Positions 4,402 to 47,601 of a stretch of DNA of 64,000 nucleotides are shown one piece after another. The first letter of the stretch is position 1. Each line of letters begins with the position of its first letter. Location of the stretch: contig NZ_KI913949.1 of NCBI RefSeq assembly GCF_000332095.2, forward strand, positions 2,979,170 through 3,043,169, given 5' to 3'. The translations under genes and the position numbers were made by a program. The notes beneath the pieces are model-generated. The model searched no databases and was not told the origin of the DNA. It was given only the letters and a program-made list of their open reading frames with translations. The DNA comes from Leptolyngbya sp. PCC 6406 (GTDB lineage Bacteria; Cyanobacteriota; Cyanobacteriia; Phormidesmidales; Phormidesmidaceae).

Positions 4402-4488
4402 GCATAACGGTGAAGTGTAGCGGCGGCAGACAAGCTCGAACTTCACATCAGTAGACTTCGACCGTCCGCTGCCACGCAGTGTTTATGC
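4402..4488 (-). other. attC-like recombination site A (downstream of the HNH cassette)
   Basis: Read on the minus strand, the site starts with GCATAAACACTGCGTGGCAG, continues GCGGACGG, and ends CCGCCGCT...CCGTTATGC. The two ends are imperfect inverted repeats: GCATAAC at the left against GTTTATGC at the right, and AGCGGCGG against AGCGGACGG. Single unpaired bases interrupt the match, as in integron attC sites, whose inner boxes often read GCGGACGG/CCGCCGCT. It is 87 bp long and lies 16 bp beyond the stop codon of the HNH gene. The R' box is GTTATGC, one base away from the consensus GTTRRRY. This is an assignment by pattern, and no integrase is present in the window. Confidence 0.7.
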
Positions 4489-7234: not shown

Positions 7235-7323
7235 GCATAACGTTGACCATCACCCGCCTCAGATAACCTCTGCATCACAGCCGATCAACTCTCAGCGGTC
7301 GGCGTGCATGGGCGTTGTTAGCT
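7235..7323 (-). other. attC-like recombination site B (downstream of the methyltransferase)
   Basis: On the minus strand the site begins AGCTAACAACGCCCATGCAC, continues GCCGACC, and ends GGCGGGTGATGGTCAACG then TTATGC. The arms CCATGCACGCCGACC and CCATCACCCGCC pair with single extra bases. It is 89 bp long, almost the length of sites A and C. It lies 17 bp from the methyltransferase stop codon. The sequence beyond its R' box (ACCGAGGACT on the plus strand) is shared with site A. Confidence 0.65.
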
Positions 7324-7340: not shown

Positions 7341-8546
7341 TTAGGCTTCTAGTAATTCTAACTGTGTAATTACCCTTGGATACTGCTGAAAATAATTTCT
7401 AGGTGGGCTTTGATTAGATTTTAGCGAAATGATATGTTGAGCTATTTGATTAGATATAAGGGGTGGGACAGCATCACCAATCTGATTATACTTAGCAGCC
7501 AAAGCACCCTCAAAAAAGTAGTGCGTAGGAAATCCCTGTAATATAGCCATTTCCCGAACCGTGAGCAACCTATCTTGCTCAGGATGAGCATATCGACCAT
7601 TCCCAACATGACCACATTCCCGAGTGATCGTTGCAGCAACATCGTGCCACTTTAGGCGACCATAAACATCTGGAAAAGAACCTGGTCTCGCACGAAACAT
7701 CGATGGAATAAGTAGTTTTTTCTTTTCCTCGTCAGAGATTTTGGGATTTTTCATAATATCTCCCCAGGAACCTCCATCTTTTGGAATAGCCTGTATTCGT
7801 GACAGAACAACCGAAGTCATTCCTGGTGATACATGCATAGGATCAGACGATTTCTCTTGACCCGCATTAGTCTTTTGTAAATGAGCAATAGCCTGCCAAA
7901 CCGTGACTTTTTCTACCTGACGTTTGAGTGGGCAACCACCGATAAATCCATGATCACGTCTAGCTATTATTAACGCCCTTTCTCGTCTCTGTGGCAGACC
8001 ATACTCTGAAAGTTCATGGATATCTGCGTATATTGAATATCCTAAGACATTCAACCGATCATAAAGTACCTGAAAATGATGTTGATGTTTCCCTCGTAGT
8101 AATTCTTTTACATTTTCCATCACGAGAAATTCGGGCAAGAATTCTTCAACAAAATCAGAGGTACGAACCACCAACTTATTCCGTGGATCATCACCCAGAT
8201 GATTTTTGGAATTTTTTTGGGAGAATCCTGTACAAGGAGGGCAGGCAATCAATACATGCAGATCCCCCTTTTTTAGACCTAATTCTTCACGATATGACTT
8301 AGGCTCTAACTTCAATAAATCAGCGTACTTAGGTTCAATACCAATATTGCGATGATAAGTAGAATTACATCGCGTGGAAGAAGCTTTATGTTTTCCTCTA
8401 CCAGGTTTAGCTACTTCGATATCAACAGCTCCAATTATCTCAAAATAGTCCCTATAGGTACGAAAGCCTTCACTCATACCCCCACACCCTGAAAACAAGT
8501 CAACCACTTTCCACAATGTATTAGGTTTTGGAGAATTGTTAGGCAT
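7341..8546 (-). CDS. DNA (cytosine-5-)-methyltransferase of a type II R-M system
   Basis: This is a C5-cytosine methyltransferase. The motifs run in canonical order: I VVDLFSGCGGMSEGF, IV ACPPCTGFSQ with the catalytic Cys, VI EFLVMENVKELL, VIII QRRERALIIARR, then a target-recognition region of about 90 residues, IX LTVREMAILQGFP and X QIGDAVPPLISNQ. From the ATG at 8546 it has 401 aa. Starts at 8600 or 8633 would add 18 or 29 residues of non-family sequence and crowd the divergent promoter. It diverges from the RHH-endonuclease pair. AT content is far above pntAB and the kinases, which suggests transfer. The target sequence cannot be read. Confidence 0.93.
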   Translation of the reverse strand: MPNNSPKPNTLWKVVDLFSGCGGMSEGFRTYRDYFEIIGAVDIEVAKPGRGKHKASSTRCNSTYHRNIGIEPKYADLLKLEPKSYREELGLKKGDLHVLIACPPCTGFSQKNSKNHLGDDPRNKLVVRTSDFVEEFLPEFLVMENVKELLRGKHQHHFQVLYDRLNVLGYSIYADIHELSEYGLPQRRERALIIARRDHGFIGGCPLKRQVEKVTVWQAIAHLQKTNAGQEKSSDPMHVSPGMTSVVLSRIQAIPKDGGSWGDIMKNPKISDEEKKKLLIPSMFRARPGSFPDVYGRLKWHDVAATITRECGHVGNGRYAHPEQDRLLTVREMAILQGFPTHYFFEGALAAKYNQIGDAVPPLISNQIAQHIISLKSNQSPPRNYFQQYPRVITQLELLEA

Positions 8547-8582
8547 CGCAATGAGGTAACGAGGTTCTTTGGCAAATGTAAC

Positions 8583-8650
8583 ACATTGTGAGACAGACAT
8601 TGTAGCCGCCTTTTGATAACGTTTTCGTAACACAATGATTCACAATGTCT
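8583..8650. promoter_or_regulatory. Divergent promoter region with repeated ACATTGT boxes
   Basis: Four copies of one box lie between the methyltransferase and RHH genes: ACATTGTGA at 8583-8591, ACATTGT at 8597-8603, inverted ACAATGA at 8632-8638, and inverted ACAATGT at 8642-8648. AGACATTGT (8595-8603) and ACAATGTCT (8642-8650) are perfect inverted repeats. Ribbon-helix-helix proteins bind such short repeated boxes, so this may be the operator of the adjacent 63-aa protein, controlling both directions. Confidence 0.55.
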
Positions 8651-8657
8651 CTCACCT

Positions 8658-8849
8658 ATGTCAAGGGCACCTAAGACTGAATTTTTGCAAATCAGGCTAT
8701 CACAGGAAGATCGAGACCGGATAGCTCATGTTGCGTCCAATGAGCATTTAGAGCCATCAACATGGGCAAGACAGATTTTACTTAAAGCTGTGGAAGACTG
8801 GGAAAAGCTCAACCTACCTAAGCAAGATGTTGAAGGTAGGAAGATCTAG
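8658..8849 (+). CDS. Ribbon-helix-helix DNA-binding protein, putative R-M controller
   Basis: This 63-aa protein is of the Arc/MetJ/CopG type: a short beta strand (TEFLQIRLS), helix A (QEDRDRIAHVASNE), a turn, then helix B (EPSTWARQILLKAVEDWEKL). It probably dimerises and binds DNA. It ends 3 bp before the endonuclease ATG. In many type II systems a small C protein with a helix-turn-helix delays the endonuclease. Here an RHH protein occupies that place, and four repeated boxes lie just upstream. A control role is inferred from position only. Confidence 0.7.
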   Translation: MSRAPKTEFLQIRLSQEDRDRIAHVASNEHLEPSTWARQILLKAVEDWEKLNLPKQDVEGRKI

Positions 8850-8852
8850 TTC

Positions 8853-9629
8853 ATGCTTGCGCCCAATTTGGACGAATTATTAGAGCAATTAAATGCAACT
8901 GCTCCACAACTGACCGCAACTAGGCTGATGTTACTTAATCGTATGGCATCCGCTCTTCAGGTTAGATTTGGTGGTTTCGTAAATCAAAGTAGCGATCTTG
9001 CGACCCCCTTGTTTTCTGAGTATTTTGCGAGTCGCTTACTAATTCATCATGCCGTAGTCGAAGAAAGACTTAACAAAAAGTCATTTGAGTATATATTTCG
9101 TGATGCCTTGCGAAATGATGGCAAAAATGCCTACATCACTGCCAGTGATGTCTATCCAGGAGCAGATTTAATAGTAGATGAAACCAGAATATCGCTTAAG
9201 ACTGAGGCATCAAAAAATATCCGAGAAGCAAAGATTACTATTTCTAAATTTATGGAAGCTCGCTGGATTCGAGATCAGGATACTGTTGGCTTAGCACGGC
9301 TAGCTTCTGAGCGACTACGTGAACATCTAGCAGGCTACGATCGTATCGTGATGCTTCGAGCCTTTAACATGCCGAGGAACGAGGTGAAATATGAGTTGAT
9401 AGAAATTCCGCACAGCCTGTTAAGTTTAGCGTCATTCTTGCAGCCGAATGACATTACCCTCAGCCCCGGTCGAAGTGGAGGAGGCAGCACTACAATTTGG
9501 CAAAACAATCGAGAAGCGTTTACTCTCAGATTTGACGGCAGTGTAGAAAAATTGACTATTACAAACCTGTCGGTAGATCTTTGCACGAGCCATGCAACGT
9601 GGAATATACCACTGACCATTCTAATTTAG
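8853..9629 (+). CDS. Putative type II restriction endonuclease (PD-(D/E)xK)
   Basis: The 258-aa protein has no name that I recognise. At about residues 105-120 it shows GADLIVDETRISLKTEA, an acidic residue followed by a strand with E/S-x-K, the pattern of a PD-(D/E)xK nuclease core. The upstream helical region (about 60-90) and the basic C-terminal half fit a small restriction enzyme. It is divergent from a C5 methyltransferase and cotranscribed with a small regulator, the usual architecture of a type II system. The stop codon is only 16 bp from attC-like site C, so the whole R-M module fills a cassette. Cleavage specificity is unknown. Confidence 0.7.
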   Translation: MLAPNLDELLEQLNATAPQLTATRLMLLNRMASALQVRFGGFVNQSSDLATPLFSEYFASRLLIHHAVVEERLNKKSFEYIFRDALRNDGKNAYITASDVYPGADLIVDETRISLKTEASKNIREAKITISKFMEARWIRDQDTVGLARLASERLREHLAGYDRIVMLRAFNMPRNEVKYELIEIPHSLLSLASFLQPNDITLSPGRSGGGSTTIWQNNREAFTLRFDGSVEKLTITNLSVDLCTSHATWNIPLTILI

Positions 9630-9645
9630 AGGCTGATGCATGAGC

Positions 9646-9726
9646 AGCTAATGGCACAATGCAGCGGCGGCAAGCAATCTCGACAACCACACAAGTGTCT
9701 CTCGACTGTCCGCTGCCATGACGTGT
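9646..9726 (-). other. attC-like recombination site C, split by a group II intron
   Basis: This is the left part of a site that continues at 10458-10462 on the other side of the intron. Rejoined it is 86 bp, matching sites A and B. Rejoining gives GTTAGAC, a perfect GTTRRRY core, at the right end. The arms ATGCAGCGGCGG and ATGGCAGCGGACAG pair with extra unpaired bases. The left core AGCTAAT departs from consensus at two positions. On the minus strand the site follows the stop codon of the 248-aa gene. That stop (TAA) overlaps the core. Confidence 0.7.
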
Positions 9727-10457
9727 GTGCGCCCAGTATGGGCATGAACTAATGGGGTGAAAGTCCCCTGTGGGAGAACCAGCCATCCAAATGCTCGTAA
9801 GTCATAGGAGCCGAGAGATGGACAACCACTAGCTTAAGGCAAGGGCGTTTCCGCGAGAGAGGGTCGGTCGGAAGCCAGCGGCAAAAGTGCGAGCCGACGG
9901 ACAGAAACGTCATAGAAGGCCGAGTCTCTGGGGCGAGTTGGCACAACACAACATAGGCGCAGCCTTCCCGAAGGGTAGCCCTATGGTTCAGGAGATACAG
10001 TAAATGACGCGGTTGCGCATGGACAGTTCACGCTCTTATCTGGGGAGATCTGCCTCCTTGGCAGTCTTTGAGGCTAAGGGAGTCTGACTGAGGACTATCT
10101 GGAAACGGGTAGGAAGCCACAGAACCCTAAGGACTGGAAGACGGCCCGACAGTTGGCAACAATCGTCGCCGGAAGCAGAAGTCAGCCGAGGCCATAGTAG
10201 TCAAACGCTGGCCTGTAATGGGCTAGACAAGGCAAAGGGCCAAACCATGGAAGGCAGAGAGGAGCCGCCAGGGCTCGTTCTGAGCGTTGAACCCGAATGG
10301 GGGAGCTATAGGAACGGCGCTTAATGGTGTAGCCAGCTCTGGGAGTCAGAGTCGAAAGAGTCTTGATTTCTAAAACTTTCTAAGGAACCGCCCGGTGCGG
10401 ACCCGCACGCCGGGTGGTGTGGGAGGGGGAGATCGTGAGGTTTTCCCCTATCCCGAT
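9727..10457 (+). mobile_element. ORF-less group II intron inserted in attC site C
   Basis: The 5' end is GTGCGCCCAG, a common bacterial group II intron start. The next 60 bases (ATGGGGTGAAAGTCCCCT) form a domain I-type hairpin. Near the 3' end, 10382-10425 looks like domain V: a stem ACCGCCCGG/CCGGGTGGT around TGCGGACCCGCA. It is followed by domain VI, GGGAGATCGTGAGG, and TTTTCCCCTATCCCGAT with a bulged A, ending in AT. At about 731 nt with no reverse transcriptase, it must depend on a maturase elsewhere. It lies on the strand opposite to the cassette genes, as known for attC-targeting introns. Confidence 0.85.
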
Positions 10458-11203
10458 TAGACCGTGGAAAGTACAGTATCCTGATTCGGAAACTTTCCAG
10501 ACATCACAACAGCATGGCATCTTTGCTGTCCATCTACTATCCCCATTGTTTGTTTGATATGTATAAATTTCGAAGCGATCTTTTTTGAATGAAATGTCTT
10601 TGTTAAAGTAAGCGCATTGGCAAAGTCATCACCCTGATAATATAAATGGTGATCAAAACTTGCCTCTTCATGAACTTTACCATCATGAATATGAACTGTA
10701 GGGAAGAAGAGTTTATCAGGCAATCGAGTGACAAACTCAAACGCTATTGGATGTGGTTTCTTCAGATTTTTCGTGGATTCTCGTAACTTGAATACGGCAA
10801 AACCATAGTCTTGATATTCGGGTAAAAGATCCCAAACTTGCCTTGATAATTTGAATTGAGGATCTAGACGATCAAAATCATTAAGCGTAGGGATAAAACT
10901 CGCATCATAATCTCCTACTTCATATACGGTCAGCGATCCTGAAGCGGAACGACACACGTTTTTAGTCAAATCAGGAAAACCCATTTCAATGTGATCGAAG
11001 AAATCTTTATAGCCGTCTAAAGGAATAAAACGAATAGTCATATATTCATCGTGAGAGCCAACGGGCAATGGCAAAATCATCGCCACATCTTGGCTGGCTT
11101 TATACCCCATGCTATAAACCAAGAACTGCTTTGAATCAGCAGAACGTCTTGCAAAGATCTTTGTGCCTTCTACTAATGGAACTGAAGGAACGATAATACA
11201 CAT
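10457..11203 (-). CDS. Cassette-borne protein of unknown function, 248 aa
   Basis: I do not recognise the family. The protein has no signal peptide or membrane helix. The N-terminus (MCIIVPSVPLVEGTKIFAR) is hydrophobic-rich and may be a strand. AMILPLPVG at about residue 41 and a Trp/Tyr-rich segment (QVWDLLPEYQDYGFAVFKL) at about 145 are notable. It has several Cys and His residues but no paired metal motif. It is AT-rich like its neighbours. The stop codon is formed at the intron junction: its last base is intron sequence, and removing the intron would regenerate TAA. There is no good ribosome-binding site. Its cassette runs from the core at 11255 to site C. Confidence 0.65.
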   Translation of the reverse strand: MCIIVPSVPLVEGTKIFARRSADSKQFLVYSMGYKASQDVAMILPLPVGSHDEYMTIRFIPLDGYKDFFDHIEMGFPDLTKNVCRSASGSLTVYEVGDYDASFIPTLNDFDRLDPQFKLSRQVWDLLPEYQDYGFAVFKLRESTKNLKKPHPIAFEFVTRLPDKLFFPTVHIHDGKVHEEASFDHHLYYQGDDFANALTLTKTFHSKKIASKFIHIKQTMGIVDGQQRCHAVVMSGKFPNQDTVLSTV

Positions 11204-11263: not shown

Positions 11264-11512
11264 GTGTTTAGACAGATCAGGGTGCCTCTACTCTGCCTAA
11301 ACACCTTGTGTAGGGGAGATAGACAGAGTTGGTGATGTCTATCTCCCTGCTGAGGGGATATAGGCAGATTACAGTCTTTATAAGCACCCAAATGGGTGGA
11401 TTAGGCAGATTATAGTCTGCCTATCTAGCTGCTGGGGCGATATAGACCGATCATGATCTGCCTATATCGCCTGAATAGGGTGTTTAGACAGATCACAGTC
11501 TGTCTGAACATC
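11264..11512. repeat. Tandem array of six related hairpins
   Basis: Six units of about 34-41 bp lie 4-10 bp apart. The inner core is shared (about TAGRCAGATYA...TCTGYCTA), and the outer stems differ but remain paired. Unit 1 (11264-11304) has stem GTGTTTAG/CTAAACAC. Unit 2 (11314-11347) has GGGAGATAGACA/TGTCTATCTCCC. Unit 3 (about 11354-11390) is degenerate. Unit 4 (11402-11423) has TAGGCAGA/TCTGCCTA. Unit 5 (11436-11471) has GGCGATATAG/CTATATCGCC. Unit 6 (11477-11512) has a 16-bp stem with two wobble pairs. Linkers contain TGCTG/TGAAT and G-runs. No gene overlaps. Confidence 0.85.
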
Positions 11513-47349: not shown

Positions 47350-47502
47350 AGCCCATCCCCCCCGATTGCTTTAAATAGCGCCGGGGTGCTCAACCTGTCA
47401 AAGCGAACAAACTTCAGACAGAACTAGGGGCAAACAGGTTTCCCCTGTCACCACCACTACCGAAGCTGGCCCTACGTCGTTTTGGTACCCTTGACCGCAA
47501 GC

Positions 47503-47582
47503 AACGCTTTCCTCCGCTGGTCTGAACCAGGTCAGGTTCTGAGGGTATAATCTCAGCCCGATTGCTCGGACACCCCTAGCTT
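47503..47582 (-). ncRNA. TPP riboswitch
   Basis: On the minus strand: GCTAGGGGTG, then CGGGCTGAGATTATACCCTC, GAACCTGACCTGGTTCAGAC, CAGCGGAGGAAAGC. This is the thi-box, with its CUGAGA, ACCC, GAACCUGA and GCGNAGG elements in order. It precedes the SSS permease by about 150 nt and lies in the gap after the glycosyltransferase gene. Confidence 0.92.
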
Positions 47583-47601
47583 GAGGCTGATTGTATCAGC
47601 C

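What the first reader, a model, noticed from the sequence alone, without database searches (positions are those of the whole stretch)
9646..10462. Group II intron sits exactly inside the core box of an attC-like site
Deleting 9727-10457 joins GT to TAGAC and gives a perfect GTTAGAC core and an 86-bp attC matching the other two. The intron is on the strand opposite to the cassette gene, as known for attC-targeting group IIC introns. Removing it also recreates the TAA stop of the upstream gene. It has no reverse transcriptase gene and its domain I seems long for class C, so it may be another class with convergent targeting.
Basis: partly seen in the sequence, partly recalled or inferred. Interest (0 to 1): 0.8.

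Follow-up and report, generated by a model that had tools for sequence, protein, structure and literature searches.

The report
Cyanobacterial IIC-attC intron without maturase
A self-splicing RNA element that has lost its own mobility protein sits exactly inside the recombination site of a cyanobacterial gene cassette; it belongs to the known attC-seeking class C introns, but to a protein-less branch of them that is spread over several cyanobacterial families.

Summary
A complete 731-nt group II intron (9727-10457, +) splits an 86-bp attC after GT of GTTAGAC. An attC covariance model built from 14 other occupied sites finds this site (E 1.3e-7) and two empty attCs in the window, all on the same strand. 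A homologous cassette gene in a relative ends in an intact, empty attC at the same position.

The 'other class, convergent targeting' idea fails. Intron ends, CGC triad, 4-nt EBS1-IBS1 pairing (covarying across sites) and the reverse transcriptases of close relatives are class C. That protein family lies in one clade with the IIC-attC introns of class 1 integrons, apart from terminator-type IIC. The long domain I is shared by known IIC-attC introns.

What looks new is the ORF-less form. Its 184-nt domain IV recurs in introns of about a dozen cyanobacterial genomes from several families. This genome lacks an intact cognate maturase and an intI. Domain IV keeps a covarying stem-loop like the one around the maturase start in ORF-bearing relatives. 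The domain IV tree makes ORF-less introns one clade; the core tree rejects that (AU p 5e-7), suggesting a mosaic history. Splicing and mobility are inferred.

The parts
9727..10457 (+). ORF-less group IIC-attC intron, 731 nt
   Evidence: Rfam matches; same ends in 707-733 nt relatives
9646..9726 (+). attC 5' part (R' AGCTAAT to GT of GTTAGAC); the intron strand is the attC bottom strand
   Evidence: model R1, E 1.3e-7; bulged T on the 3' half of the hairpin
10458..10462 (+). attC 3' end TAGAC (rest of the R'' core); first T = IBS3
   Evidence: joined flank
9723..9726 (+). IBS1 (GTGT)
   Evidence: TTGT or GTGT at 38 of 47 sites listed; pairs 3 of 4 with EBS1
9943..9946 (+). EBS1 (ACAA) in the DI loop
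   Evidence: EBS1 changes with IBS1 across copies
9727..10200 (+). ribozyme core, domains I-III (474 nt, with a 22-nt extra element near 9953-9974)
10201..10384 (+). ORF-less domain IV, 184 nt, shared by the ORF-less lineage
10385..10457 (+). domains V and VI, CGC triad, 3' end ..CCCGAT
   Evidence: RF00029
10457..11203 (-). cassette gene (248 aa, no Pfam or NCBIfam match); stop TAA overlaps the R'' core
7235..7323 (+). empty attC after the methyltransferase gene
   Evidence: R1 52.1 bits
4402..4488 (+). empty attC after the HNH-endonuclease gene
   Evidence: R1 60.7 bits
7341..9629 (.). restriction-modification cassette: C5 methyltransferase (7341-8633, -) and SmaI-like endonuclease (8853-9629, +)

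Best explanation
The element is a non-autonomous (ORF-less) group IIC-attC intron. A ribonucleoprotein made of this intron RNA and a class C maturase supplied in trans recognised the folded bottom strand of an attC plus a short IBS1 (NTGT) and IBS3 (T). It reverse-spliced into the R'' core right behind the cassette gene's stop codon, antisense to the gene, and was copied into DNA. Its own ORF was lost by an internal domain IV deletion shared with ORF-less introns in several cyanobacterial families. The lineage keeps a domain IV stem-loop that probably still serves as the maturase docking site. Position, class, target pairing, ORF loss and family spread are shown by sequence; splicing, trans-mobilisation and maturase docking are inferred.
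For: Intron and ends. attC and empty sites. A homologous cassette in G030 ends in an intact attC at the same place. Class C: published class C end consensus (PMC4028801), CGC triad, IEP nearest to GsI-IIC, IEP tree with class 1 integron IIC-attC introns. Same topology as class 1 integron introns behind blaIMP and aadA1. EBS1-IBS1 covariation, 7 of 20,000 shuffles as good. Shared ORF-less domain IV. Covarying domain IV stems. In G000, 5 of 6 intron 5' ends lie in attCs.
Against: No expression or splicing data. No intact cognate maturase in this genome, so the copy may be immobile today. The target attC is worn and pairs only 3 of 4 at IBS1. The attC model was trained on other intron-occupied sites of this family, although it also finds empty attCs and attCs near intI genes.
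Confidence: 0.92

Rival explanations
1. A group II intron of another class (IIB or similar) that evolved attC targeting independently, as the first reader suggested and as reported for some IIB introns near attC sites (PMC7923331).
For: Domain I is longer than in Firmicutes IIC introns; IIB introns next to attC sites have been described.
Against: Class C IEPs in ORF-bearing relatives, IEP tree, CGC triad and class C end consensus, 4-nt EBS1, and the same DI length in known IIC-attC introns.
Confidence: 0.02
2. Dead relic: this ORF-less copy is a decayed deletion derivative that no longer splices or moves; the conserved domain IV only reflects shared descent.
For: No maturase or intI in the genome; other copies in G000 are fragments; worn attC.
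Against: The domain IV module is conserved between families at about 67-69% identity with compensatory changes; ORF-less copies occupy different attCs; all domains are present with intact ends. The lineage has clearly moved, even if this copy may not.
Confidence: 0.3
3. ORF-less introns arose several times by independent ORF deletions in each host lineage, and their domain IV looks alike only because of a shared structural constraint.
For: The core tree scatters ORF-less introns among ORF-bearing neighbours; AU test rejects one clade, p 5e-7.
Against: Shared sequence words (GGGGGAGCTAT, CGGCGCTTAAT) and the same joined 3' arm; domain IV tree groups all ORF-less introns 97/96.
Confidence: 0.3

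Closest known systems
Group IIC-attC introns of class 1 integrons (S.ma.I2 type; here L177-L179 on plasmids with blaIMP-4, aadA1 and blaIMP-38)
   Same: 5' end GTACGCCCAGCATGGGC..GAACTAATG, EBS1 ACAA, TTGT|T target, insertion in R'' of the attC bottom strand, antisense to the cassette gene, DI-DIII about 455 nt, class C maturase without endonuclease.
   Different: Those carry an intact ltrA and two of the three shown lie beside intI1; this one has no ORF, no intI and no cognate maturase in its genome, and its host is a cyanobacterium.
ORF-less TeI3 introns of Thermosynechococcus elongatus (group IIB, PMC2882425)
   Same: ORF-less lineage from one domain IV deletion, mobilised in trans by IEPs of related introns.
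   Different: TeI3 introns were described from one genome and target EBS/IBS homing sites; here class IIC, several families of host, attC targets, and discordant core and domain IV trees.
Terminator-type group IIC introns (Firmicutes; GsI-IIC relatives)
   Same: Class C ribozyme and maturase, insertion after a DNA hairpin.
   Different: Insert behind Rho-independent terminators (T-run 5' exons), shorter DI-DIII (about 357 nt), separate clade in the IEP tree.

Membership tests
Group IIC-attC intron | Class C intron ends (5' GUNYGCCNRGCAUGG, 3' ..CGAU; PMC4028801) | tested here: met
   GTGCGCCCAGTATGG, one mismatch; relatives match fully; 3' ..CCCGAT
Group IIC-attC intron | CGC catalytic triad in domain V | tested here: met
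   CGC aligned with AGC of RF00029
Group IIC-attC intron | Short 3-4 bp EBS1-IBS1, target (N)TGT|T | tested here: met
   EBS1 ACAA, IBS1 GTGT, 3 of 4 pairs; covariation across 35 sites
Group IIC-attC intron | No EBS2-IBS2 pairing | not tested
   no tertiary-structure model was made
Group IIC-attC intron | Inserted in R'' of the attC bottom strand, opposite to the cassette gene | tested here: met
   attC model hit and gene orientation
Group IIC-attC intron | Class C IEP without endonuclease domain | tested here: inconclusive
   absent from this copy; ORF-bearing family members have a 444-454 aa class C IEP
Group IIC-attC intron | Splicing and retrohoming activity | not testable with these tools
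   needs RNA or mobility assay
Integron / CALIN | attC sites in a common orientation with cassette genes | tested here: met
   three attCs in the window, 32 in the genome
Integron / CALIN | Integron integrase gene (complete integron) | tested here: not met
   no TIGR02249 match over cut-off in G000, so CALIN; 52 of 136 genomes in the relatives search have one

The most novel reading that the evidence does not exclude
A SINE-like, maturase-less IIC-attC intron lineage persists across cyanobacterial families, including genomes without a cognate maturase. Its domain IV module (deletion scar plus maturase-docking stem-loop) is passed between intron cores, for example by template switching of the reverse transcriptase, so that each ORF-less intron keeps a core matched to the local maturase.
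Probability: 0.45. Interest if true: 0.65.

Novelty: new variant of a known kind. Interest (0 to 1): 0.5.

Why it matters
It shows attC-targeting class C introns as a family with many copies in cyanobacterial CALINs and integrons, not only in clinical class 1 integrons. It also gives class C a non-autonomous lineage comparable to the TeI3 introns of T. elongatus. Because the ORF-less copies keep a domain IV stem-loop that no longer codes, they separate RNA constraint from coding constraint and make the maturase docking site of IIC introns directly testable. The varied EBS1-IBS1 pairs are a natural mutational series for target choice.

Tried and rejected
Another ribozyme class with convergent attC targeting: rejected by IEP relations, end consensus, triad and EBS1. 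Alternative 5' end at 9725: rejected by comparison with relatives. Papers PMC2747902, PMC2714756 and PMC3001079 (Leon and Roy; Leon et al.) are not held, so what they say about ORF-less or cyanobacterial IIC-attC introns could not be checked. Similarity of the ORF-less domain IV to the IEP at protein level: none found, only at nucleotide level. The 35-nt domain IV match in G156 is treated as chance. Apparent forward open frames in some ORF-less introns (up to 141 codons in L059/L060) are not in a consistent frame between copies and were not pursued. The first script alignment of three own-genome copies was useless because two were on the other strand.

Full report
OBSERVATION. Rfam places domain I-IV pieces and domains V-VI of a group II intron on the + strand, ending at 10457. 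The intron is 731 nt and has no long open frame. The same element occurs at 15 places in the genome, three of them full length (709-731 nt), the others fragments, and matches 37 of the 143 genomes searched with it. I listed 32 places where its 5' end could be fixed. Thirty carry an attC-like sequence just upstream; one abuts a different 10-bp palindrome (L066; z -3.06 as folded DNA) and one is a tandem duplicate within an intron. The common arrangement is RYYYAAC(G)..~80 nt..(N)TGT | GTACGCCC...CCCGAT | TAGRC.

THE SITE. Fourteen occupied sites other than this one were joined across the intron, aligned and made into a covariance model, R1. R1 finds 4402-4488, 7235-7323 and 9646-9731 in the window, all on the + strand, and 32 sites in the genome; five of these bear an intron 5' end (compare). 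It also finds attCs close to integron integrase genes of relatives. Most of the hairpins carry an unpaired base, usually T, on the 3' half. From my knowledge of attC structure, extrahelical bases lie on the '' side of the bottom strand, so the intron strand is the bottom strand and the intron sits in R''. That matches the position of the cassette gene 10457-11203 on the other strand. The stop codon TAA overlaps R'' and is intact with the intron present. A homologous gene in G030 (64-72% identity in two pieces) ends ..DTVIATA* with its stop TAA inside the R'' core of an intact attC. This is an empty counterpart, not an allele of the same locus.

CLASS. ORF-bearing members of the same family encode a 444-454 aa maturase. 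The closest solved structure is GsI-IIC (E 6.6e-133), followed by other class C proteins; LtrA is far behind. A tree of 50 IEPs puts the ten cyanobacterial proteins in one clade (SH-aLRT 100), next to Ectothiorhodospira and Thiorhodococcus proteins and within the large clade that also holds the IEPs of class 1 integron introns. Terminator-type IIC proteins, mostly of Bacillota, form the other side. The plasmid introns L177-L179 lie antisense directly behind blaIMP-4, aadA1 and blaIMP-38, the arrangement described for IIC-attC introns (PMC7923331; PMC8876359). Domain I-III length is about 455 nt in this family and in L178, against about 357 nt in terminator-type introns, so the 'long domain I' is a feature of the subclass. 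EBS1 is ACAA at 9943-9946. In copies whose target is GTGT, TGGT or TAGT, EBS1 is in several cases ACAC, ACCA or ACTA; the total pairing was matched by 7 of 20,000 shuffles (two rows, L197 and L208, were misread by the pattern there, and the reading raises their pairing).

THE ORF-LESS FORM. The three full copies in this genome and those in G048, G050, G062 and G118 share a domain IV of about 184 nt. The module occurs in 12 other genomes of 388 (one of them a doubtful 35-nt match), with long intron matches in distant families and attCs beside those whose 5' ends were present. It resembles the first part of domain IV of ORF-bearing introns, including the Shine-Dalgarno region and a remnant of the first codons, joined to a new 3' arm. 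Its consensus fold has 36 pairs, 8 with changes on both sides; 29 double-changed cells against a shuffled mean of 10.8, and the slid controls fall far below. ORF-bearing introns fold the start of their ORF into an equivalent stem. I infer that this is the docking site of the maturase, by analogy with domain IVa of other group II introns. Of the five genomes in which full ORF-less introns were first compared, only G050 holds an intact cognate maturase (G062 and G118 are incomplete assemblies). In G000 there is a 111-aa start of one, next to an IS630-like insertion (the IS630 label is my own reading of the protein).

DISCORDANCE. A tree of the domain IV block makes all 17 ORF-less introns one clade (97/96; 98% of bootstrap trees). 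A tree of the core scatters them, and holding them together costs 60 log units (AU p 5e-7). L065 is 90-92% identical to neighbouring ORF-bearing introns in the core but 78-82% to distant ORF-less ones, while its domain IV is 68-69% identical to the latter. Either domain IV has been exchanged between introns or ORF loss was repeated under strong constraint. The coding constraint on ORF-bearing rows may help to hold them together in the domain IV tree, so I leave this open.

LITERATURE. In the held library IIC-attC introns are described from class 1 integrons and some other bacteria, and the ORF-less introns of T. elongatus are a different class (PMC2882425; class IIB from my own knowledge). A survey reports CL-type introns as the main type in cyanobacteria (PMC8919778). 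I found no description of ORF-less IIC-attC introns or of IIC-attC introns in cyanobacteria, but the key IIC-attC papers are not held.

VERDICT. The finding is real and its mechanism is that of a known kind. The protein-less, widely spread branch is a new variant as far as the held literature shows.

Noticed in passing
window 7341-9629: A complete-looking restriction-modification pair (C5 methyltransferase and SmaI-family endonuclease, genes pointing apart) lies between two attCs, as one cassette.
   Followed up: partly
window 9953-9974; L046; L062: Small palindromic elements (e.g. GGCGCAGCCTTCCCGAAGGG, TGCGAAGCAG) are inserted in loops of the introns at different places in different copies.
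   Followed up: no
G054 C2:3253061-3256092 (L058 holds most of it): About eight tandem copies of a 350-bp piece of the maturase gene inside an intron copy.
   Followed up: no
window 11361-11512: Four palindromic repeats about 41 bp apart (TAGGCAGATTA.AGTCTGCCTA type) upstream of the cassette gene.
   Followed up: no
window 47492-47587 (-): TPP riboswitch (RF00059, 64 bits).
   Followed up: no
L066 (G000 C1:5108286-5108994): One full ORF-less copy sits not in an attC but behind another palindrome, GGGCGGGTTT..AAACCCGCCC TACCTTGT|T, as if a hairpin plus TTGT|T suffices.
   Followed up: partly
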